Source: an uncultured Bacilli bacterium
GTDB lineage: Bacteria > Bacillota_I > Bacilli_A > RF39 > UBA660
Direction of reading: 5' to 3'
Length of the DNA stretch: 39,685 nucleotides
NCBI GenBank assembly: GCA_947630575.1
Contig: CANRIB010000009.1
Coordinates: 1-39,685, forward strand
Shown here: one piece after another, positions 73 through 26,502 of the stretch
Layout: each line of letters starts with the position of its first letter
Numbering within the stretch: position 1 is the first letter of the stretch
Made by a program: the position numbers and the translations under genes
Notes under the pieces: model-generated
Told to the model about the DNA's origin: nothing
Databases searched by the model: none
The model's input: the letters and a program-made list of their open reading frames with translations, nothing else

Positions 73-561
73 ATGAAAAAAATAATAATAATTAATGGAA
101 CAGGGGGAAGTGGCAAAGATACATTTGTTGAGTTAGTTAGCAAATATGCTTTGGTTTATAATTTTTCTTCGATAGATAAAGTTAAAGAATTGGCAAAAAT
201 AGTTGGTTGGACGGGAACTAAAACGGATAAAGATCGAAAGTTTTTAAGTGATTTAAAACATTTGACGACAGAATATAATGATATGGCTTTTAATAGTATT
301 AAAGAAGCAGTAGAAAATTTTAAAACAACAGATAAAGAAATAATGTTTATTCATATAAGAGAACCAGAAGAAATAAAAAGAGCAGTTAAAGAATTTGGGG
401 CTTTAACTTTGCTTATTAAAAGAGAGGGATTAGATAATATTAGCTCTAATTATTCAGATGCTAATGTAGATAATTATAATTATGATTATGAAATATTAAA
501 TACAACTTTAGAAGAATTAGATAAGAAAGCAAATTCTTTTGTCCAAGATTTAAAAGAATAG
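73..561 (+). CDS. P-loop nucleotide kinase-like protein
   Basis: A 162-residue soluble protein opening with a beta strand and a Walker A loop, GTGGSGKDTF (about residues 9-18), as in nucleoside and deoxynucleoside monophosphate kinases. The rest is charged and helical and fits a small kinase fold, but I see no diagnostic substrate motif, so the substrate is unknown. The frame stays open to the window edge. I chose ATG 73 because AAAGGA at 55-60 lies 12 bases upstream and because the P-loop normally follows the start closely; ATG 61 would sit directly against the ribosome binding site. Another frame reads open from base 3 to a TGA at 48-50 and may be the tail of a preceding gene. The gene converges on yidD with a gap of only five bases. 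Confidence 0.6.
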   Translation: MKKIIIINGTGGSGKDTFVELVSKYALVYNFSSIDKVKELAKIVGWTGTKTDKDRKFLSDLKHLTTEYNDMAFNSIKEAVENFKTTDKEIMFIHIREPEEIKRAVKEFGALTLLIKREGLDNISSNYSDANVDNYNYDYEILNTTLEELDKKANSFVQDLKE

Positions 562-566
562 AGTAA

Positions 567-785
567 TTATTTTTTAGGTGGTACTAAGTCAATGCCACTT
601 TTTTTATTGAAAGGATTACATTTTAATAGTCTTTTAATAGTAAGATATGTGCCTTTAAAAAAGCCGTGAGTTTCTAAAGCTTCAATTGCGTAGTTGCTAC
701 AAGTGGGGTAAAAACGACAATGATTGTGGAAGTCGCCAGGAATAGTTTGATAGAGTTTAATTAATTTAATTAGTAATTTTTTCAT
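567..785 (-). CDS. yidD: Membrane protein insertion efficiency factor YidD
   Basis: A 72-residue protein of the YidD (UPF0161, haemolytic-like) family. The hallmark is visible: a basic N-terminal amphipathic helix followed by [15 protein letters not shown] (about residues 23-37) with its paired cysteines, then a G-x2-(K/R)-G-x3-x2-K-R-L-x-K-C-x-P segment ending in NPF. Length is normal for the family. YidD lies at the inner face of the membrane and aids the YidC/Oxa1 insertase. In many bacteria it sits beside rnpA and yidC; neither is near it here. It converges with the kinase gene and is divergent from the PLP enzyme gene at 859, sharing a 73-bp intergenic region. Confidence 0.93.
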
Positions 786-858
786 GGTTATAATTTTAAC
801 ACTAAAAAATAATAATTACTAGGTTTTTTCATATAGTTTAGTAAAAGAAGGGAATTAG

Positions 859-2037
859 ATGAAAAATTTTACTAATTATACGGTTTATGATAAAAAAGAA
901 AAATATCATGATGATACTAAAGTAGTCAGAGGGGCTTTGGGGCATGATCCAGTTACAGGGGCCATAAGTTTTCCTATTTTTCAAGCAACAACATATAGAC
1001 ATATTGGAATAAAAGAAAATACTAATTTTAATTATAGTCGAATTATTAATCCAACAAGAGAAGAGTTTGAAAGAACAATGGCAATACTTGATGGAGGTTA
1101 TAAGGCTTTTGCTGTAACGAGTGGGATGGCGGCAGTATCCCTTGTTTTAACAATGCTTAAAAGTAAGGAACATATATTAATTTCGGATGATGTTTATGGA
1201 GGAACTGTTAGAGCGTGCGAAAATACATTAAAAACGATGGGAATAGAATATAATCAGGTAGATTTTACGGATATAGAAGAAGTAAAGAAAAATATTAAAT
1301 CTAATACAAGAATGATGCTTATTGAAACACCTACTAATCCGATGATGAAAGTTGCAGATATAGAGGAAATTGCTAATTTAGCGCATAAACATGGCATTAC
1401 AGTCGTGGTAGATAATACTTTTTTGACAGGTTATTATCAAAAACCTTTACTTTTTGGGGCCGATATAGTTATTTATAGTGCGACAAAATATATTGCAGGA
1501 CATAATGATGTACTTGCTGGGGTAGTAGTGGTTAAAACAGAAGAACAGGCTGAATATTTAAAGAATCAAAATGCAGTTTTGGGTGCTTCTTTGTCCCCGA
1601 TGGATTCATGGCTCGCGTTAAGAGGTCTTAAGACACTGGCGATTAGGATGGAAAAACATAGTAGCAATGCTTTTAAAGTAGCAGAGTTTTTAAGACATCA
1701 TCCAAAAGTAAAAAAAGTTTATTATGTTGGGTTTGAAGATCATCCTAATTATTTAGTAACTAAAAAACAAACAACGGGGTTTGGAGGGATGATTTCTTTT
1801 GAACTTGATACAATGGAAACAGTTAATAAGTTTTTAGAGAAAATTAATTTGATATTATTTGCAGAGAGTTTAGGAGGAGTAGAATCTTTGGTGACCCATC
1901 CGGCGAGTAGAACACATACTGAAGTAACTAAAGAAATTAGAGAAAAACTGGGTATAAGTGATACTTTACTTAGACTTTCGGTAGGAATAGAAAATAGTGA
2001 AGATTTAATTAATGATTTGAAACAAGCTTTAGATTGA
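859..2037 (+). CDS. Cys/Met-metabolism PLP enzyme (cystathionine gamma-lyase/synthase family)
   Basis: A 392-residue fold-type I PLP enzyme of the trans-sulfuration family. Visible landmarks are the YSRIINPTREEFE substrate/PLP segment (about 56-68), the TSGMAAVSLVL phosphate-binding region, the DNTF PLP-pyridine aspartate region, and SATKYIAGHNDVLAG carrying the Schiff-base lysine, followed by the LRGLKTLAIRMEKH element. Full length for the family. The members (cystathionine gamma-synthase, gamma- and beta-lyase, O-acetylhomoserine sulfhydrylase, methionine gamma-lyase) cannot be told apart by eye. It starts the wall-related run: GAGGGGGATAAAATG gives only a 10-base gap to dapF, so the two are probably cotranscribed. 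The ribosome binding site AAGAAGGGAATTAG fixes the start. Confidence 0.88.
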   Translation: MKNFTNYTVYDKKEKYHDDTKVVRGALGHDPVTGAISFPIFQATTYRHIGIKENTNFNYSRIINPTREEFERTMAILDGGYKAFAVTSGMAAVSLVLTMLKSKEHILISDDVYGGTVRACENTLKTMGIEYNQVDFTDIEEVKKNIKSNTRMMLIETPTNPMMKVADIEEIANLAHKHGITVVVDNTFLTGYYQKPLLFGADIVIYSATKYIAGHNDVLAGVVVVKTEEQAEYLKNQNAVLGASLSPMDSWLALRGLKTLAIRMEKHSSNAFKVAEFLRHHPKVKKVYYVGFEDHPNYLVTKKQTTGFGGMISFELDTMETVNKFLEKINLILFAESLGGVESLVTHPASRTHTEVTKEIREKLGISDTLLRLSVGIENSEDLINDLKQALD

Positions 2038-2047
2038 GGGGGATAAA

Positions 2048-2908
2048 ATGATTAATTTTACAAAAATGCAAGCTTATGGAAATGATTATATTTATATAAA
2101 TATGATTGATAGAGAAATACTTAATTTAAGTTCTCTTGCCCAAAAAATTACCAATAGACATTTGGGAGTTGGGGGAGATGGATTAGTTTTAATTGATAAA
2201 AGTCTAAATGCTGACTTTAAAATGCGCATATTTAATCCAGATGGAACAGAAGCAGAAATGTGTGGCAATGCGATTAGAAGTGTTGCAAAATATGTTTATG
2301 AAAAAGGTTTAACTACTAAAAGGGTTTTAAAAATTGAAACTTTGGGGGGAATTAAAGAATTAAAATTAATAATAAAAAATGATAAAGTGGATGTGATTGA
2401 AACTAATCTGGGATTACCAGAGTTTAGAACTAATTTGATACCAGTTAAAATAGATAAAGAAAATTTTATTAATGAAAAAGTTAAAGTGCTTGATAAAGAT
2501 TTTTGGTTAAGTAGTTTATCATGGGGAAATCCTCATACAGTTACTATTGTAGAAGATTTAAATAATTTAGATATCGAAAAGTATGGACCTTTGATAGAAA
2601 ATAATCAAATATTTCCTAAAAGAACTAATGTAACATTTTTAGAAATAAAGAAGAGAAACTATCTAAAGATTAGAGAATGGGAAAGAGGCACAGGAGAAAC
2701 TATTGGGTGTGCAACAGGGTGTGCAGCAGCCTTTGTAATAGCGCATTTATTAGGTTTAGTTGATTATGAGGTGGTGGTAGAACAAATCGGGGGAACATTG
2801 GAAGTTAAATTAGATAAGGAAACTGGGGAAGTCAAAGTAATTGGAACTACTAATTTTGTATTTGATGGTAGTCTTTCAAATTCATTTATAGAGGAGGTTA
2901 ATAAATGA
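2048..2908 (+). CDS. dapF: Diaminopimelate epimerase
   Basis: DapF, 286 residues, converts LL-diaminopimelate to meso-diaminopimelate in the cytosol, the last step before MurE or lysine decarboxylation. The N-terminal segment KMQAYGNDYIYI, the first catalytic cysteine in MCGNAIRSVAKY (about 72-83) and the second in GCATGCAAAF (about 218-227) are visible. The second motif is slightly unusual: the family norm is GTGACA, here GCATGCA, so an extra cysteine sits three to four residues before the catalytic one. The stop overlaps the murE start (ATGA), indicating translational coupling. Presence of dapF beside a DAP-type murE argues that this organism makes meso-DAP. Confidence 0.95.
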   Translation: MINFTKMQAYGNDYIYINMIDREILNLSSLAQKITNRHLGVGGDGLVLIDKSLNADFKMRIFNPDGTEAEMCGNAIRSVAKYVYEKGLTTKRVLKIETLGGIKELKLIIKNDKVDVIETNLGLPEFRTNLIPVKIDKENFINEKVKVLDKDFWLSSLSWGNPHTVTIVEDLNNLDIEKYGPLIENNQIFPKRTNVTFLEIKKRNYLKIREWERGTGETIGCATGCAAAFVIAHLLGLVDYEVVVEQIGGTLEVKLDKETGEVKVIGTTNFVFDGSLSNSFIEEVNK

Positions 2909-4368
2909 AAGCGTTAGAAATATTAAAAGATATTAAATATACAATTCTTGAGGGTGATTTAGATGTTGATATTAAAGATATTAAGTATGATAGTAGGAAA
3001 GTAGAAGAAGGTGATATGTATGTTGCAATTCAGGGATTTAATACAGATGGACATGATTATATACCGGAAGCTATAAGTAGAGGAGCGAGAGTAATTGTAG
3101 TAGCAAAGGTAATGAAAATCCATGGAGATGTAACAGTAATTAAAGTTAATGATACAAGAGAATTTTTAGCTTTAGCTAGTCTTAACTATTTTGGACATCC
3201 CGAAAAAGATTTGTTTTTAATTGGAGTTACAGGAACGGCTGGTAAAACAACTACTACGCATTTAATTAAAAATATTTTAGATAATTCTTTAATAAATTCT
3301 GGATTAATTGGTAGTATTGGGATTAAGTATTTAGATAAAATTGTACCAATAAAAAATACAACTCCAGAATCTTATTTGGTTGTTAAATATTTAAAAGAAA
3401 TGAAAGGTTTGGGGATTAGGCATGTAATTATTGAAGCATCTAGTCAAGCTTTTAAGCTCAAAAGACTTTTTGGTCTTACTTTTGATATAGGAGTGTTAAC
3501 TAATGTTACTAGTGATCATATTGGGGTTAATGAACATGAAAATCACCAAGAATATGTTAAGTGTAAGAATAAGTTATTTTTAAATAGTAAAGAAGTAATA
3601 GTTAATAATGATTCTAAGTATTTAAAAGAAGTATTAGATGGAGTAAGTTCTAATATTAATAGTTATGCGATTAATAGTAAGGCAGATTTGCAGGTTAAAG
3701 AATATGCGTTAGTTAATGATAAAGAAATATTTGGTTCAGTATTTAAAACAAAGGGTTTATTAGAAGAAGAGTTTAAAATTAATTTACCGGGGAAGTTTAA
3801 TATTTATAATGCTCTCGCGGCTATTATGGTCGCTCTTAAACTTGGAATAAATATAGATAAAATTAAAACATCTTTATTAAGTTTAAAAATAAGGGGTAGA
3901 ATGGAACTGGTGATGGTTAATCAAACTTATAAAGTTTTAATAGATTATGCTCATACGGAAGATGGTCTTAAAAATTTAGTAGCAACTTTAAGTGAGTATA
4001 AACCAAAAAGATTAATTGCCGTATTTGGAGGAGGAGGAAATAGGCCAAAAATGCGAAGAATAAGTTTAGGAGAAGTAATTGGGGCCTATAGTGATTTATG
4101 TATTATTACGATGGATAATCCGAGATTTGAAGAAATAAGTGCAATTAATGAAGATATAAAGTTAGGGCTTAATAAAGTTAATGCTAAGTATATTGAAATA
4201 GATGATAGGGAACAAGCGATTAGATATGCTTGTAATTATGCTAAAGAGGGAGATTTAATTGTGTTAATTGGTAAGGGGCATGAAGAGTATCAAGATATTA
4301 AAGGGGTTAAATATCCTTTTAGTGAATTAGAGATATTAGATAAAATAAAAAAGGAAATTAACAATTAG
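2905..4368 (+). CDS. murE: UDP-MurNAc-tripeptide synthetase, DAP-type motif
   Basis: MurE, 487 residues, adds the third stem-peptide residue to UDP-MurNAc-L-Ala-D-Glu. The N-terminal UDP-binding domain contains the family YDSRKV motif; the central ATPase domain has the P-loop GVTGTAGKTTTT (about 108-118), EASSQAFKLKR and the YVKCK region bearing the lysine that is carbamylated in this family; the C-terminal domain has DYAHTEDGL and GKGHEEYQ. Residues 404-407 read DNPR, the signature of meso-DAP-adding MurE enzymes such as those of E. coli and B. subtilis. It is the last gene of the PLP enzyme-dapF-murE run; a separate promoter follows it. A second, different MurE lies at 5695. Confidence 0.94.
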   Translation: MKALEILKDIKYTILEGDLDVDIKDIKYDSRKVEEGDMYVAIQGFNTDGHDYIPEAISRGARVIVVAKVMKIHGDVTVIKVNDTREFLALASLNYFGHPEKDLFLIGVTGTAGKTTTTHLIKNILDNSLINSGLIGSIGIKYLDKIVPIKNTTPESYLVVKYLKEMKGLGIRHVIIEASSQAFKLKRLFGLTFDIGVLTNVTSDHIGVNEHENHQEYVKCKNKLFLNSKEVIVNNDSKYLKEVLDGVSSNINSYAINSKADLQVKEYALVNDKEIFGSVFKTKGLLEEEFKINLPGKFNIYNALAAIMVALKLGINIDKIKTSLLSLKIRGRMELVMVNQTYKVLIDYAHTEDGLKNLVATLSEYKPKRLIAVFGGGGNRPKMRRISLGEVIGAYSDLCIITMDNPRFEEISAINEDIKLGLNKVNAKYIEIDDREQAIRYACNYAKEGDLIVLIGKGHEEYQDIKGVKYPFSELEILDKIKKEINN

Positions 4369-4412
4369 TTGTCAAATTCCAGATATTTCTAGGTTTAGAT
4401 AGTAATTAATTT

Positions 4413-4441
4413 TTGACTTATCTTTATTACTTTAGTATAAT
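4413..4441 (+). promoter_or_regulatory. Sigma-A type promoter for ATP-grasp/murE2 pair
   Basis: TTGACT at 4413-4418, a 17-base spacer and a perfect TATAAT at 4436-4441. The start of transcription would fall near 4448, only about 18 bases before the ATG at 4466, leaving just room for the AGGAAGTG ribosome binding site. It makes the D-Asp-ligase-like gene and the second murE a unit independent of the upstream dapF-murE run. Confidence 0.75.
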
Positions 4442-4465
4442 ATAAGTGTTTTAGGAAGTGATAAT

Positions 4466-5680
4466 ATGAAAATAATAGATAAAGAATTTGGGGCAGTACT
4501 TTTGGGAAGTGATATAAATACTTATAGTATGGCAAGAGCTTTTCATGAAGAGTATAAAATTAAAACAAAAGTAATAGGAAAGTTTTATACAGGTCCTAGT
4601 TTTCAAAGTAAAATAGTAGATTTTGAAGCTCATTCTGATATAGATAATAAAGAAGTATTTATTAAAGTATTAAATGATTATGCGGATTTAAATAAAAATA
4701 AAAAATTAATATTATTGGGATGTGGAGATAATTATGTTAGAAATATAATTGAGAATAGAGAAAGTTTAAGAGATAATTTTATTATTCCTTATATAAATAA
4801 AAATTTAATGGAAGATTTAATTAAAAAAGAATGTTTTTATGAGATGTGTGAAAAATATGGATTAGATTATCCTAAAACTTTTATCTATAATAAAAAAATG
4901 GGACATGATTTTAAATTAGATTTTGCATATCCAGTTATTCTTAAGCCTTCTAATAGTGTCGATTATTTTCTTCATGAGTTTCCAGGACAGTTTAAAGTTT
5001 ATAAAATAGAGTCAGAAGAAGAGTTATTAAAAGTAATAGATGACATATATAAGGCGGGTTATAGTGATACTTTAATATTACAGGATTTTATTCCGGGGGA
5101 TGATACTTATATGCGAGTTATGACTTGTTATTCTGATAAATCCGGAAAAGTTAAATTAATGAGTCTAGGGCATACTATGCTTGAGGAACATACCCCACAT
5201 GGGATTGGGAATCATGCCGTAGTTATTAATGAATATAATGAAGAATTAGCAGAGAAAATAAAAGGATTTTTAGAGGCTATTCATTATGTAGGTTTTAGTA
5301 ATTTTGATATTAAATATGATACAAGAGATAATACTTACCGAGTATTTGAAATTAATTTAAGACAGGGAAGAAGTAATTATTATGTAACGGGGGCTGGTTA
5401 TAATTTAGCTAAATATATTACTGAAGATTATATATATAATAAAGATACTGGTTTTACAATTGCTGATAATAAACATCTTTGGACGATGATTCCTATTAAA
5501 ATTGCTTATACTTATGTTAAAGATAAGAAATATGTGGATGAAATGAAAAAATTAGTTAAAGAAAAGAAAATAACTAATCCTTTGTATTATAAAGGAGATA
5601 ATAATTTAAAGAGATATATGAGGCTTAAAAGAGCAGATAAAAAACAGTTTGAGAAATTTAAGAAGTATTTGGGAGAGTAA
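4466..5680 (+). CDS. D-aspartate ligase-like ATP-grasp enzyme (peptidoglycan cross-bridge)
   Basis: A 404-residue ATP-grasp protein that resembles, along its whole length as I recall it, the Enterococcus faecium D-aspartate ligase (Aslfm). Shared features include LLGSDINTYSMARAF near residues 12-25, GCGDNYV (85-91), FYEMCEKYGLDYPKT (124-138), the ATP lysine in LKPSNSVDY (159-167), QDFIPGDD (206-213), and the metal/phosphate-binding FEINLRQGRS (294-303). Known members activate the beta-carboxyl of D-Asp and join it to the epsilon-amine of the lysine in the UDP-MurNAc-pentapeptide, giving an L-Lys-D-Asp cross-bridge. The next gene, 14 bases downstream, is a MurE whose specificity motif is of the lysine kind, which fits. 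Substrate (D-Asp, or another D-amino acid) is inferred. Confidence 0.85.
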   Translation: MKIIDKEFGAVLLGSDINTYSMARAFHEEYKIKTKVIGKFYTGPSFQSKIVDFEAHSDIDNKEVFIKVLNDYADLNKNKKLILLGCGDNYVRNIIENRESLRDNFIIPYINKNLMEDLIKKECFYEMCEKYGLDYPKTFIYNKKMGHDFKLDFAYPVILKPSNSVDYFLHEFPGQFKVYKIESEEELLKVIDDIYKAGYSDTLILQDFIPGDDTYMRVMTCYSDKSGKVKLMSLGHTMLEEHTPHGIGNHAVVINEYNEELAEKIKGFLEAIHYVGFSNFDIKYDTRDNTYRVFEINLRQGRSNYYVTGAGYNLAKYITEDYIYNKDTGFTIADNKHLWTMIPIKIAYTYVKDKKYVDEMKKLVKEKKITNPLYYKGDNNLKRYMRLKRADKKQFEKFKKYLGE

Positions 5681-5694
5681 TTTAGGAGGTTTGG

Positions 5695-7218
5695 ATGAAA
5701 ACTTTTAGGGTAAAAGATTATATTGAGGTTTTAGAAAAAGATAATTTAATAGAGTCTTTAAATATTAGTGATGATTTATTAAATAAAGAAGTAAAAAATA
5801 TTACGCATAATTCTAGAGAAGTTAAAGATAATACTTTATATATATGTAAAGGGATTAAATATAAGTCTATTTATTTAGAAGAAGCTATAGAAAAAGGGGC
5901 TATGTTATATGTATGTGAAGCTTCTAATTTAACAGAGCCAGATTATCCTTATATAGTTGTAAAAGATATTAGAGCGGCTTTAGCACTTATATCTATTCTT
6001 TATTATAATAATCCTGCAGAAAAATTAAGAGTGGTGGGTATTACAGGAACTAAGGGAAAATCCACGACGGCTTATTATGTGAAAAGTATCTTAGATAATT
6101 ATTTAAAAGATAAGAATAAAGATACGGCGATTGTTTCATCAATTGATGTTTATGATGGAAAGACAACTAAAGAAGCTTTAATTACGAGTCCTGAGTCAAT
6201 TGATTTGCAAAGAATTATGGCAAATGCAGTAGAGGCAGGATTAAATGATTTAGTGATGGAAGTTAGTAGTCAAGCTTTAAAACTTAAGAGAGTATATGGG
6301 GTAACTTATGATGTAGGAGTGTTTTTAAATATTTCTCCAGATCATATAAGTTCAATAGAACATTTAGATTATGATGATTATTTTTATTCAAAATTAAAAC
6401 TTTTTAAACAAGTTAAGAATTTAGTTTTAAATTTAGATACAGATAGATTAGATGAAGTATTAGAAAAAGCTAAAGAAGTAGATAATATAATTACTTTTAG
6501 TACTAAAAATAAAGCAGCAGATATATATGCTTATGATATTAAAAAAATAGATTATATAACAACTAGTTTTAAAGTAAGAACAGGAAAATTTGATAAAGAA
6601 TTTGTTTTAACAATGCCGGGATTATTTAATGTCGAAAATGCTCTAGCCGCGATAGGGGTTGCCTATATTTTAGATATTCCTTATGAAAATATGTATGAAG
6701 GATTGAAGATTGCTAGAACAAGTGGCAGGATGGAAGTGCATATAACAAGGGATAAAAAGATTATAGGAATAGTTGATTATGCGCATAATAAGCTTAGTTT
6801 TGAAAAATTGTATGAATCAGTTAAAAATGAATATCCTGATAAAAAGATTATTACTGTTTTTGGGTGTCCGGGGGGTAAAGCTGAGATTAGACGACATGAT
6901 TTAGGACTTTTATCAGGGCTTAATTCAGAGATAACATATTTAACGGCAGAAGATCCAGGACCAGAGGATGTTACTAAAATATGTGAAGAAATAGCAGGAT
7001 ATGTCAAGGAAAGTGGAGGAGCTTACAAAATAATAGAAGATAGAGAAACTGCGATAAAAAGAGCTATTTTAGATAATATTGATGCCGTTATATTAATAAC
7101 TGGTAAGGGAAATGAAACAAGACAAAAATATGGGACAGAATATTTGCCTTGTAAAACGGATACAGAATGTTTGTTAGAAGCTTTTCAAGAATATGAAAAA
7201 GAAGCTGTTTCAAATTAG
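5695..7218 (+). CDS. murE2: Second MurE-type ligase, putative L-lysine-adding
   Basis: A 507-residue Mur ligase, clearly MurE but distinct from the copy at 2905. It has the N-terminal THNSREV motif, P-loop GITGTKGKSTT (about 114-124, lysine 122), EVSSQALKLKRVYGVTYDVGVFLNISPDHI, the YFYSKLKLF carbamyl-lysine region, and DYAHNKLSF and GKGNETRQ in the C-terminal domain. At the third-residue recognition position it reads EDPGPED (419-425) instead of DNPR. Streptococcal and lactobacillal L-Lys-adding MurE enzymes, as I recall them, have DDPN/DDPG-x-EDP here. L-lysine is therefore the likely substrate. It follows the D-Asp ligase homologue by 14 bases with AGGAGG as ribosome binding site. Confidence 0.87.
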   Translation: MKTFRVKDYIEVLEKDNLIESLNISDDLLNKEVKNITHNSREVKDNTLYICKGIKYKSIYLEEAIEKGAMLYVCEASNLTEPDYPYIVVKDIRAALALISILYYNNPAEKLRVVGITGTKGKSTTAYYVKSILDNYLKDKNKDTAIVSSIDVYDGKTTKEALITSPESIDLQRIMANAVEAGLNDLVMEVSSQALKLKRVYGVTYDVGVFLNISPDHISSIEHLDYDDYFYSKLKLFKQVKNLVLNLDTDRLDEVLEKAKEVDNIITFSTKNKAADIYAYDIKKIDYITTSFKVRTGKFDKEFVLTMPGLFNVENALAAIGVAYILDIPYENMYEGLKIARTSGRMEVHITRDKKIIGIVDYAHNKLSFEKLYESVKNEYPDKKIITVFGCPGGKAEIRRHDLGLLSGLNSEITYLTAEDPGPEDVTKICEEIAGYVKESGGAYKIIEDRETAIKRAILDNIDAVILITGKGNETRQKYGTEYLPCKTDTECLLEAFQEYEKEAVSN

Positions 7219-7221
7219 TAC

Positions 7222-8082
7222 TTAATTTAGTGTTCTTAAAATAGTATTTAGTATTTCAATAGCAATATTATATGTTTTATTGTTAAGATCTTTTAAAGGG
7301 TTATATTCAACTAAATCAAAGGAACAGATGTGAGAAATATTTGCTAAAAAGAGATTAAGAGCTATTAAGCTTTCTTCTTTTGATAAGCCATTTATTTCAG
7401 GAACAGATACACCGGGAGCTATATTAGGGTCAATAACATCTAAATCAAAACTTATATGGATTTTAGATGTGTTTTTAGTAGCTATTTTTATAGCTTCTTT
7501 TATAACATGATTGATTCCTAATTTTTTTATGTCTTTAGTAGTAAAAATTTTAATACCATTGATAATTAGATTTTCTTTTTCGAGAGTATCAATACTTCTA
7601 GCACCAACAATGACAGTATTTTCAGGTTTAATATAGTTATTAGTAAATTTGGTTAAATCTTCATTGTGGAAGTTGTTAATAGCCGCGAGAGGTAATCCGT
7701 GGATGTTGCCTGTAATGGTTGTTTCAAAGGTATTATAATCAGGGTGAGCATCAAACCATATTAGACCAATATTTTCATTTATGGTTGCACTTGCTAGGGC
7801 GCTTCCGATGGCAAGAGAATGGTCACCTCCAATGATAATGGGGAATTTTTCTTTGTTGTTTAGGATAGTATTATATAGTTTTTGATTGAAAATATTGACA
7901 GCTTGAAGATTTTTTTTAAGATTAGTAGTTTCTTTTTCTTTAATAAAATTGGGATTGTTTTTAATATAAATTACTTCTTTATTTTGAGTTTCTAAATATT
8001 TTCCTAAATTATAAGCACCAAGACTTGCTCCATCTATATGAACACCGGCATCAGTACAAGCACTAATTATAATAGGTTCCAT
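7222..8082 (-). CDS. Arginase-family ureohydrolase
   Basis: A 286-residue manganese ureohydrolase. The three metal-binding motifs are present: GGDHSLAIGS, FDAHPDYNT and SFDLDVIDP. The stretch after the second motif, FETTITGNIHGLPLAA, matches arginases (usually TSPSGNIHGMPLA) better than agmatinases or formiminoglutamases, so conversion of L-arginine to ornithine and urea is the best call. The reading frame continues upstream to 8262 without a stop, but it would overlap the divergent pduL-like gene; ATG 8082 has AAGGTG seven bases upstream and begins MEPIIISACTDAG, where family members begin. It converges on the second murE with a 3-base gap, so each must stop transcription within the other. 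Confidence 0.87.
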   Translation of the reverse strand: MEPIIISACTDAGVHIDGASLGAYNLGKYLETQNKEVIYIKNNPNFIKEKETTNLKKNLQAVNIFNQKLYNTILNNKEKFPIIIGGDHSLAIGSALASATINENIGLIWFDAHPDYNTFETTITGNIHGLPLAAINNFHNEDLTKFTNNYIKPENTVIVGARSIDTLEKENLIINGIKIFTTKDIKKLGINHVIKEAIKIATKNTSKIHISFDLDVIDPNIAPGVSVPEINGLSKEESLIALNLFLANISHICSFDLVEYNPLKDLNNKTYNIAIEILNTILRTLN

Positions 8083-8196
8083 TTTTATCACCTTGTTTAT
8101 TTTAACATAAAAGTATATATTAATAAATAAGTTTGTTTTTACTTCTTCTTTTTTGAGAAAAAAAATGGTACAATTAAAGAGGAAAAGAGTGATAAT

Positions 8197-8781
8197 ATGT
8201 TGGTTAAAAAAACAAAGGAAAAAGTTTATGTAACGGTGGCGGTTAGTAATAGACACGTGCATTTAACAAAAGAAATATATGATAAGTTATTTGATGAGGC
8301 ATTATCAATGAAAAGACCTTTAAATCAAATTGGGGAGTTTGCATCATTTCAGACTCTAACTTTAAAGGGACCTAAGGGAGAAATACCAAATGTAAGATTA
8401 ATTGGACCACTTCGTAAATATAATCAGGTCGAAATATCTAGAAGTGATGCGATAGTTTTAGGGGTTAATCCTCCAGTTAGACAAAGTGGAGATTTAGAGG
8501 ATAGTGAGACAATTACATTGATAGGCCCTAAAGGAGAAGTTACTTTAGATAATGCTTGTATTCAGGCAGAAAGACATATTCATATGAATTCTAGTAAAGC
8601 TAAAGATTTAAAATTAAAACATGAAGATTTAGTTAAAGTAAAAGTTGAAAATGATAAAGGGGGAATTATGGAAGCTTTTGTTAAAGTAACGGATAATGGT
8701 TTTTATGAATTACATATAGATAAAGATGATGCCAATGCTTTTATGCTTAATACGGGGGATGAAGTAGAAATAGAGTGGTAG
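8197..8781 (+). CDS. pduL: PduL-type phosphate acyltransferase (phosphotransacetylase)
   Basis: A 194-residue PduL-family protein that exchanges acetyl- or propionyl-CoA with phosphate. Two similar halves are visible, each with a metal-binding histidine cluster: SNRHVHLT near residues 12-19 and AERHIHMNSSKA near 125-136. The central QIGEFASFQTLTLKGPKGEI and GPLRKYNQVEISRSDAI stretches are typical. The N-terminus lacks an obvious long targeting helix and no shell-protein genes are nearby, so this is probably a housekeeping enzyme that replaces Pta, linking acetyl-CoA from the PFOR at 26575 to acetyl phosphate and ATP. A hairpin terminator follows at once, so it is monocistronic. Confidence 0.92.
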   Translation: MLVKKTKEKVYVTVAVSNRHVHLTKEIYDKLFDEALSMKRPLNQIGEFASFQTLTLKGPKGEIPNVRLIGPLRKYNQVEISRSDAIVLGVNPPVRQSGDLEDSETITLIGPKGEVTLDNACIQAERHIHMNSSKAKDLKLKHEDLVKVKVENDKGGIMEAFVKVTDNGFYELHIDKDDANAFMLNTGDEVEIEW

Positions 8782-25985: not shown

Positions 25986-26007
25986 CATATCTTATATTGT
26001 GAGATAT

Positions 26008-26502
26008 ATGATAAAATTTTTTAAAAATTTAATAAATATTATTAAAGAGAAAGATCCGGCAATACATAGTAATTGGGAAGTAATAGTTTATCCTTTTTTT
26101 AAGGTTTATATTTATTATAAAATAGCTCATTTTCTTTATTTACATAAGTTTTATTTTTTAGCACGTTTTTTAAGTGAAAGAGCAAAGATTAGAACAGGAA
26201 TAGAGATACATCCAGGAGCAGTGATAGGAAAAAATTTTTTTATAGATCATGGGGTAGGAGTCGTGATTGGAGAAACTGCAGTTATTCAGGATAATGTAAT
26301 GCTTTATCATGGAGTTACTTTAGGTGGAACAGGAAAAGATAAAGATAAAAGACATCCAACCATAAAAAATAATGTAATTATTGGGGCAGGGAGTATCATT
26401 TTAGGAAATATTACAATTGGAGAAAATGCTGTTATTGGAGCAGGTTCTATAGTTTTAAGAAATGTGCCTGATAATATGGTGGTTGTGGGGGTTTATAAAT
26501 AA
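26008..26502 (+). CDS. cysE: Serine O-acetyltransferase
   Basis: A 164-residue short-form CysE/EpsC, which transfers acetyl from acetyl-CoA to L-serine, the first step of cysteine synthesis. The N-terminal helices ([32 protein letters not shown]) lead into a left-handed beta helix with [29 protein letters not shown] and the [21 protein letters not shown] loop containing the catalytic histidines. It stops at VVVGVYK where most relatives read VVGxPAK and carry on for some residues, so the C-terminal cap is a few residues short. There is no visible ribosome binding site: GTG 25999 and ATG 26008 lie 14-23 bases after the T-run of the previous terminator, so the message may be leaderless or near so. 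Confidence 0.86.

What the first reader, a model, noticed from the sequence alone, without database searches (positions are those of the whole stretch)
2048..7218. Two MurE enzymes with different third-residue motifs beside dapF
The first MurE has DNPR (404-407), a meso-DAP signature, and stands next to dapF. The second has EDPG (419-422), as in lysine-adding MurE. One genome would then have enzymes for both DAP and Lys stem peptides. This could mean mixed or condition-dependent wall chemistry, or specialisation of one copy to another substrate. Two separate promoters would allow differential use.
Basis: partly seen in the sequence, partly recalled or inferred. Interest (0 to 1): 0.75.

Follow-up and report, generated by a model that had tools for sequence, protein, structure and literature searches.

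The report
Two wall-building enzymes, two chemistries
A gut bacterium that cannot make the usual cell-wall building block DAP keeps one wall enzyme next to genes that could make a sulphur stand-in for it, and carries an inserted three-gene package that looks able to build a second kind of wall link from ornithine (or lysine) plus D-aspartate.

Summary
In detail: dapF, MurE1 (DNPR, 404-407) and MurE2 (EDPG, 419-422) are there, and both MurEs are under purifying selection. The reading needs three corrections. (1) The genome seems unable to make DAP. DapB is missing from all 25 genomes of the genus, and dapA, asd, lysC and lysA are missing from the 95% of this genome that was searched. MurE1 instead sits in a conserved cluster, PLP enzyme-dapF-murE1, pointing to a sulphur analogue (meso-lanthionine or allo-cystathionine) or scavenged mDAP. 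(3) ATP-grasp-MurE2-arginase is an insertion exactly between murE1 and pduL, in 4 of 25 congeners. MurE2 groups with Lys-type MurEs (Enterococcus faecalis, Latilactobacillus curvatus) and lacks the DAP-carboxylate arginine; the arginase suggests ornithine as much as lysine. An ATP-grasp-Asp racemase-MurE2 operon is widespread in Clostridia, four times within a few kb of a DNPR MurE. Best model: one stem chemistry from cluster 1, and a second, Orn(or Lys)-D-Asp, from the inserted module. Chemistry and simultaneous use are inferred, not shown.

The parts
859..2037 (+). PLP enzyme of the cystathionine gamma-synthase/gamma-lyase family; proposed to make the L,L-diamino dicarboxylic acid (cystathionine or lanthionine)
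   Evidence: Pfam Cys_Met_Meta_PP 5e-148; 40% identical to E. coli MetB, 29% to MetC; MetB Y46, R48, Y101, R106, K198, E325, S326, R361 kept; next to dapF-murE1, or murE1 alone in G002, wherever the contig allows a look
2048..2908 (+). dapF; proposed L,L to meso epimerase of a DAP analogue
   Evidence: TIGR00652 250.6 bits; catalytic Cys and distal-carboxylate residues kept; Gly in place of H. influenzae Gln44 (PMC12039745)
2905..4368 (+). MurE1 with DNPR (404-407); third-residue ligase for a meso-type diamino dicarboxylic acid
   Evidence: NF001126 474.5 bits; DNPR in all MurE1 of the genus
4413..4441 (+). promoter-like site in the 97-bp gap between murE1 and the inserted genes
   Evidence: TTGACT-17-TATAAT, 11 of 12 matches, best in 560-8400, but total count equals chance
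4466..5680 (+). ATP-grasp carboxylate-amine ligase, D-aspartate ligase (AslA/Aslfm) homologue
   Evidence: 37-41% identical to homologues in L. crispatus (next to asnB), L. curvatus (next to an amino-acid racemase) and L. fermentum; AlphaFold pLDDT 89.8, ATP-grasp matches in PDB; tree places it with the LAB enzymes
5695..7218 (+). MurE2 with EDPG (419-422); predicted L-Orn- or L-Lys-adding ligase
   Evidence: TIGR01085 297 bits; clade with E. faecalis and L. curvatus MurE; relatives in ATP-grasp-racemase-MurE operons of Clostridia
7222..8082 (-). arginase (the 8262 start of the longest ORF is probably wrong; MEPIIISA start at 8082)
   Evidence: TIGR01229 198 bits, cut-off 227.6; DAHxDYNTxxTTITGNIHG signature and orthologues of 283-302 aa

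Best explanation
The locus joins two stem-peptide systems. System 1 (PLP enzyme-dapF-murE1) is fixed in the genus: an organism without the DAP pathway condenses cysteine with an activated hydroxy-amino acid (or a second cysteine) into L,L-cystathionine or L,L-lanthionine, DapF turns it into the meso-type form, and MurE1, whose DNPR arginine needs a distal carboxylate, adds it as residue 3 in place of meso-DAP. System 2 is an insertion into the murE1-pduL gap in one sub-lineage: arginase makes L-ornithine from arginine, MurE2, which lacks the carboxylate-binding arginine but keeps two acidic residues for a side-chain amine, adds L-Orn (or imported L-Lys) as residue 3, and the ATP-grasp ligase adds D-Asp to its side-chain amine, giving an Orn(Lys)-D-Asp cross-bridge. 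Shown: gene content, conservation, insertion site, pocket motifs, homology of the parts, purifying selection. Inferred: every substrate, and that both chemistries are used by one cell. Separate likelihoods: MurE1 takes a meso-type dicarboxylic residue 0.85; made in-house as a sulphur analogue 0.45; MurE2 takes a non-carboxylated diamino acid 0.8 (Orn over Lys about 0.55 to 0.4); ATP-grasp protein is a D-Asp ligase 0.75.
For: DapB HMM above cut-off in 0 of 25 genus genomes while 11 control genomes ring; DapF above cut-off in 22 of 25. No dapA, dapB, asd, lysC, lysA, thrA or cysK in the 94.9% of this genome fetched. PLP enzyme-dapF-murE1 contiguous in 22 genus genomes; in G002 dapF is gone and the PLP enzyme abuts murE1. 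MetA-type acyltransferase in 24 of 25 genus genomes, missing only in G002; serine acetyltransferase in the window with no CysK found. DapF has the Gly form reported to tolerate lanthionine (PMC12039745); E. coli and Anabaena MurE use D,L-lanthionine (PMC12681378). Precise insertion: murE1-pduL-dusB in genus mates, murE1-ATPgrasp-MurE2-arginase(-)-pduL in four. MurE2 in the Lys-type clade, 100/100. ATP-grasp homologues beside racemase, asnB or MurE2 relatives. Arginase also adjoins EDPR MurEs in G512, G326 and G161. dN/dS, window against G019: MurE1 0.15, ATP-grasp 0.10, MurE2 0.13 (ratios).
Against: Many other genomes of the family have DNPR MurEs without DapF or this PLP enzyme, so a meso-type residue can come from elsewhere, such as scavenged mDAP or muropeptides. 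G002 keeps the PLP enzyme without DapF. No D-Asp racemase, active Alr, Dat or Ddl was found in 95% of this genome, so the D-Asp source is unknown. MurE2 relatives with an E in the first motif position occur in Clostridia without arginase, so EDPG does not itself indicate ornithine. Other DapF-bearing genomes of the family lack both DapB and the PLP enzyme. All chemistry is inferred.
Confidence: 0.5

Rival explanations
1. MurE1 adds scavenged meso-DAP (or muropeptides are recycled), and the PLP enzyme beside it serves sulphur-amino-acid metabolism or works as an alanine racemase supplying D-Ala, as E. coli MetC can. DapF is a relic or acts on imported L,L-DAP.
For: Order RF39 and relatives were predicted to be mDAP-type with precursor steps missing and to need scavenged muropeptides (PMC10868615). 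Family members without DapF or the PLP enzyme still have DNPR MurEs. The only Alr-like protein here has Ser at the PLP-lysine position, and E. coli MetC is annotated as also an alanine racemase. G002 keeps the PLP enzyme without dapF.
Against: Scavenged mDAP is already meso and would not need DapF, yet DapF is kept in 22 of 25 genomes and coupled to murE1. The PLP enzyme is MetB-like (40%) rather than MetC-like (29%), and MetA is missing only in the genome that also lost DapF.
Confidence: 0.35
2. MurE2 adds L-lysine; the arginase is a passenger of the insertion, and the bridge is Lys-D-Asp.
For: MurE2 shares the DPG motif with L. curvatus MurE (a Lys-D-Asp lineage) and groups with E. faecalis and L. 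curvatus. Clostridial relatives in ATP-grasp-racemase-MurE2 operons have no arginase in sight.
Against: No lysine biosynthesis (lysA, dapA, dapB not found). Arginase lies inside the insertion in all four genomes and is beside EDPR MurEs in three further genomes.
Confidence: 0.38
3. MurE2 and the ATP-grasp ligase make a specialised molecule, not bulk peptidoglycan.
For: The pair is accessory (4 of 25 congeners) and in Clostridia lies as a compact operon beside a housekeeping DNPR MurE in four loci.
Against: No tailoring or export genes in the insertion; all three proteins resemble cell-wall enzymes; the nearest named homologues are in lactobacilli with D-Asp bridges.
Confidence: 0.12

Closest known systems
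aslA-racD D-aspartate bridge system of Lactococcus lactis and lactobacilli (Aslfm in Enterococcus faecium), with AsnH amidation (PMC4155827)
   Same: ATP-grasp ligase of the same family; homologues in L. crispatus beside asnB and in L. curvatus beside a racemase; AsnB homologue elsewhere in this genome (C20)
   Different: Here the ligase is in one operon with its own second MurE and next to an arginase, with no racemase found, in a genome that also has a DNPR MurE
Fusobacterium nucleatum meso-lanthionine peptidoglycan
   Same: No DAP pathway, DNPR MurE (F. vincentii), sulphur diamino acid proposed as residue 3
   Different: F. nucleatum uses a CysK-type lanthionine synthase and its 'DapF' is a histidine racemase (PMC11602996); here a MetB/CGL-type enzyme and a canonical DapF are clustered with murE, and no CysK was found
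E. coli dap mutants with cystathionine or lanthionine in place of DAP (Mengin-Lecreulx 1994, cited in PMC12681378)
   Same: DNPR MurE and DapF can handle the sulphur analogues
   Different: There forced by mutation and feeding; here proposed as the natural state
ATP-grasp-Asp/Glu racemase-MurE2 operons of Clostridia (Clostridium aminobutyricum, Flavonifractor plautii, Evtepia)
   Same: Same ligase and MurE2 families in one operon; four loci have a DNPR MurE within a few kb
   Different: Racemase instead of arginase; no PLP enzyme-dapF cluster

Membership tests
meso-DAP-adding MurE (EC 6.3.2.13) | Mur ligase domains and DNPR motif | tested here: met
   MurE1:
meso-DAP-adding MurE (EC 6.3.2.13) | DAP biosynthesis available in the organism | tested here: not met
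   DapB absent from 25 genus genomes; dapA, asd, lysC, lysA not found in 95% of own genome
meso-DAP-adding MurE (EC 6.3.2.13) | Selectivity for meso-DAP in vitro | not testable with these tools
   enzyme assay needed
L-Lys/L-Orn-adding MurE | No arginine in the DNPR motif, acidic residues for the side-chain amine kept | tested here: met
   MurE2 EDPG and GKGNE
L-Lys/L-Orn-adding MurE | Groups with characterised Lys-type MurEs | tested here: met
   100/100 clade with E. faecalis, L. curvatus and Collinsella; S. aureus lies elsewhere
L-Lys/L-Orn-adding MurE | Choice between Lys and Orn | tested here: inconclusive
   arginase in the insertion, but motif not diagnostic
D-aspartate ligase (AslA/Aslfm) | ATP-grasp fold and full-length homology to enzymes of D-Asp-bridge species | tested here: met
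D-aspartate ligase (AslA/Aslfm) | Linked aspartate racemase or other D-Asp source | tested here: not met
   none found in own genome, although relatives' loci have one; so the protein is described as a homologue, not filed as a proven member
D-aspartate ligase (AslA/Aslfm) | D-Asp ligation to a peptidoglycan precursor | not testable with these tools
   assay needed
Diaminopimelate epimerase (DapF) | Catalytic cysteines and distal-carboxylate residues | tested here: met
   MCGN, GNPH, TNV, ERGxGET, GCATGC; Gly at Gln44
Lanthionine peptidoglycan of the Fusobacterium kind | CysK-type lanthionine synthase | tested here: not met
   no CysK homologue found
Arginase | Arginase signature and family score | tested here: inconclusive
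   signature present but 198 bits is below the TIGR01229 cut-off of 227.6

The most novel reading that the evidence does not exclude
One bacterium builds two peptidoglycan stem chemistries from adjacent gene sets: a natural sulphur analogue of DAP (meso-lanthionine or allo-cystathionine) made by a MetB-type enzyme plus a true DapF, and an L-Orn-D-Asp branch supplied by an acquired ATP-grasp-MurE2-arginase module; similar ATP-grasp-racemase-MurE2 modules add a second stem type in many Clostridia that also carry a DNPR MurE.
Probability: 0.27. Interest if true: 0.85.

Novelty: new variant of a known kind. Interest (0 to 1): 0.6.

Why it matters
A large group of uncultured gut Bacilli was predicted to be mDAP-type but unable to make DAP (PMC10868615). 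A PLP enzyme-dapF-murE1 cluster offers a concrete in-house answer for one genus that can be tested with a few enzymes. A compact ligase-MurE2-arginase insertion would show how a second wall chemistry is acquired. DAP-containing and DAP-free stems are seen differently by host sensors such as NOD1 and by wall-cutting enzymes (established knowledge), so mixed walls would have consequences. The clostridial ATP-grasp-racemase-MurE2 operons include culturable species (Flavonifractor plautii, Clostridium aminobutyricum) in which this can be checked at once.

Tried and rejected
Pfam and phmmer against PDB gave nothing for the ATP-grasp protein; family, tree, context and fold were used instead. The weak DapB-like hit in the genus (E about 1e-7, N-terminal only, 351 aa) resembles 2,4-diaminopentanoate dehydrogenase (best NCBIfam match 128.6 bits, below its cut-off of 400), not DapB. 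EDP motif as an ornithine signature: rejected, because Clostridia with Asp racemase and no arginase share it. DapF-PLP enzyme co-occurrence across the whole family: not found; DapF occurs in about 11 sampled genomes of other genera near none of these genes, except G425, where murE and asnB are 2.5 to 6 kb away. The PLP enzyme in G512 beside cysK and an ABC transporter is the ordinary transsulphuration pair. Literature on paired MurEs with D-Asp ligase: nothing in the open library.
Full report
OBSERVATION. Window 859-8082 holds, in order: a PLP enzyme (859-2037), dapF (2048-2908), murE1 (2905-4368), an ATP-grasp gene (4466-5680), murE2 (5695-7218) and, on the other strand, an arginase (7222-8082), followed by pduL and dusB. 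dapF overlaps murE1 by 4 bases and starts 10 bases after the PLP gene; murE2 starts 14 bases after the ATP-grasp gene. DNPR is at residues 404-407 of MurE1 and EDPG at 419-422 of MurE2. The only promoter-like site that stands out (11 of 12 positions) lies at 4413-4441, before the ATP-grasp gene; promoter-like sites as a whole are at chance level.

NO DAP PATHWAY. The dapB model is above its cut-off in none of 25 genomes of the genus (window genome included), one of them 99% complete, while it rings in 11 of 14 control genomes. DapF is above its cut-off in 22 of 25. In 1,266,163 of 1,334,683 bases of the window's own genome, DapA, DapB, Asd, LysC, LysA, ThrA, ThrB, ThrC, CysK and LuxS were not found with E. 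coli queries, and a second pass with HMMER gave the same for DapA, DapB, Asd, LysC, LysA and CysK; MurC, MurD, MurF, MurG, MraY, MurT and MurI homologues were found by the same kinds of search. The N-terminal DapB-like hit is a 351-aa protein nearest to 2,4-diaminopentanoate dehydrogenase. Published work predicts order RF39 and its relatives to be mDAP-type with precursor steps missing (PMC10868615).

SYSTEM 1. The PLP enzyme, dapF and murE1 are contiguous in 22 genus genomes, one further copy being cut by a contig end; in G002, dapF is missing and the PLP enzyme directly precedes murE1, which still has DNPR. In a sample of 283 family genomes the PLP enzyme occurs only in this genus and in G512, where it sits with cysK and an ABC transporter, the usual transsulphuration setting. 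It is MetB-like and keeps the MetB active-site residues, with D45 changed to N; in G020 and G347 R106 is E and E325 is G. A MetA-type acyltransferase is in 24 of 25 genus genomes and missing only in G002, which also lost dapF. A serine acetyltransferase lies at 25999-26502 of the window although no CysK was found. DapF keeps the residues that bind the distal amino acid, and has Gly where H. influenzae has Gln44; the Gly enzymes epimerise lanthionine as fast as DAP, the Gln44 enzyme hardly at all (PMC12039745). E. coli and Anabaena MurE accept D,L-lanthionine (PMC12681378). These facts fit a sulphur analogue of DAP, with cystathionine slightly favoured by the MetB-type active site. They do not prove it: the family has many DNPR MurEs in genomes without DapF, so scavenging remains a serious rival, and an alanine racemase role of the PLP enzyme cannot be excluded because the only Alr-like protein here has lost its PLP lysine.

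SYSTEM 2. In the genus mates examined murE1 is followed by pduL and dusB where the contig allows a look, except in G002 and G021. In the window genome, G019, G011 and G012 the ATP-grasp gene, murE2 and the arginase lie exactly in that gap. The branching order of the four is the same for the ATP-grasp protein, MurE1 and MurE2, so one acquisition is enough. Between the window and G019, dN/dS is 0.15 for MurE1, 0.10 for the ATP-grasp protein, 0.13 for MurE2, 0.08 for the PLP enzyme and 0.34 for DapF (ratios): all are maintained. G021 has a MurE2 (DDPG) elsewhere and an ATP-grasp homologue beside a FemAB protein and AsnB.

WHAT THE ATP-GRASP PROTEIN IS. It has no Pfam match. Its model (mean pLDDT 89.8) matches ATP-grasp enzymes, among them L-amino acid ligase and PylC with lysine. 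It is 41% identical to a protein beside asnB in L. crispatus, 39% to 'carboxylate-amine ligase' beside an amino-acid racemase in L. curvatus and 37% to one in L. fermentum. L. lactis AslA is an ATP-grasp enzyme encoded with the aspartate racemase; most lactobacilli have Lys-D-Asp and L. fermentum ornithine (PMC4155827). Other homologues in the family lie beside an Alr-type racemase and AsnB. In the tree the window protein is in the same main branch as the lactobacillus enzymes.

WHAT MURE2 IS. It has lost the arginine that holds the DAP carboxylate and keeps acidic residues at the two positions that, by established knowledge of MurE structures, hold the side-chain amine. With E. faecalis, L. 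curvatus and Collinsella MurE it forms a clade with support 100/100, apart from the DAP anchors. In genome contigs, 48 of the 80 nearest ATP-grasp loci have a MurE2 relative and 69 have an Asp/Glu-type racemase, mostly as an ATP-grasp-racemase-MurE2 operon in Clostridia such as Clostridium aminobutyricum and Flavonifractor plautii; four of these loci also have a DNPR MurE within a few kb. The arginase inside the insertion, and arginases beside EDPR MurEs in G512, G326 and G161, suggest ornithine, but the E of the motif is shared by clostridial MurE2s without arginase.

GAPS. No D-Asp racemase, active alanine racemase, D-amino-acid transaminase or Ddl was found in the 95% of the genome searched; these may lie in the unread 5%, be divergent, or be made good by uptake. 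The genus sample is MAGs of 53-99% completeness. Substrates and simultaneous use are inference throughout.

VERDICT. Observation confirmed. Interpretation partly supported: two third-residue chemistries are likely encoded, but the first is probably not home-made DAP, and the second comes as a D-Asp-bridge module with an arginase.

Noticed in passing
G418:C18, G419:C21, G244:C12, G567:C30, G264 (L245-L250): Other genera of the family carry a second kind of MurE pair: DNPR plus DDPH or DDLH, head to tail or nearby; 11 of 29 family genomes in a hand-picked sample have two MurEs.
   Followed up: partly
L339, L348, L350, L356 (clostridial contigs): ATP-grasp-racemase-MurE2 (EDSG) operons with a DNPR MurE within a few kb.
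   Followed up: partly
G002:C4 48204-50886 (L244): dapF is missing between the PLP enzyme and murE1; the MetA homologue is missing from the same genome.
   Followed up: partly
L118:4488-5546 (G000:C29): Alanine-racemase-like protein with Ser where the PLP lysine should be; possibly inactive.
   Followed up: no
window:25999-26499: Serine O-acetyltransferase although no cysteine synthase was found in the genome; its product may feed another enzyme.
   Followed up: no
G020 and G347 PLP enzyme: Two active-site residues of the MetB-type enzyme are changed (R106E, E325G) while the cluster is kept; G020 also has the ATP-grasp-racemase-AsnB cluster.
   Followed up: no
L098:7691-8746 (G000:C8): Homologue of 2,4-diaminopentanoate dehydrogenase (ornithine fermentation), present in much of the genus.
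   Followed up: no
window:9860-11149: Membrane protein with a hydrolase-like C-terminal part between dusB and murC, kept near murC in several congeners.
   Followed up: no
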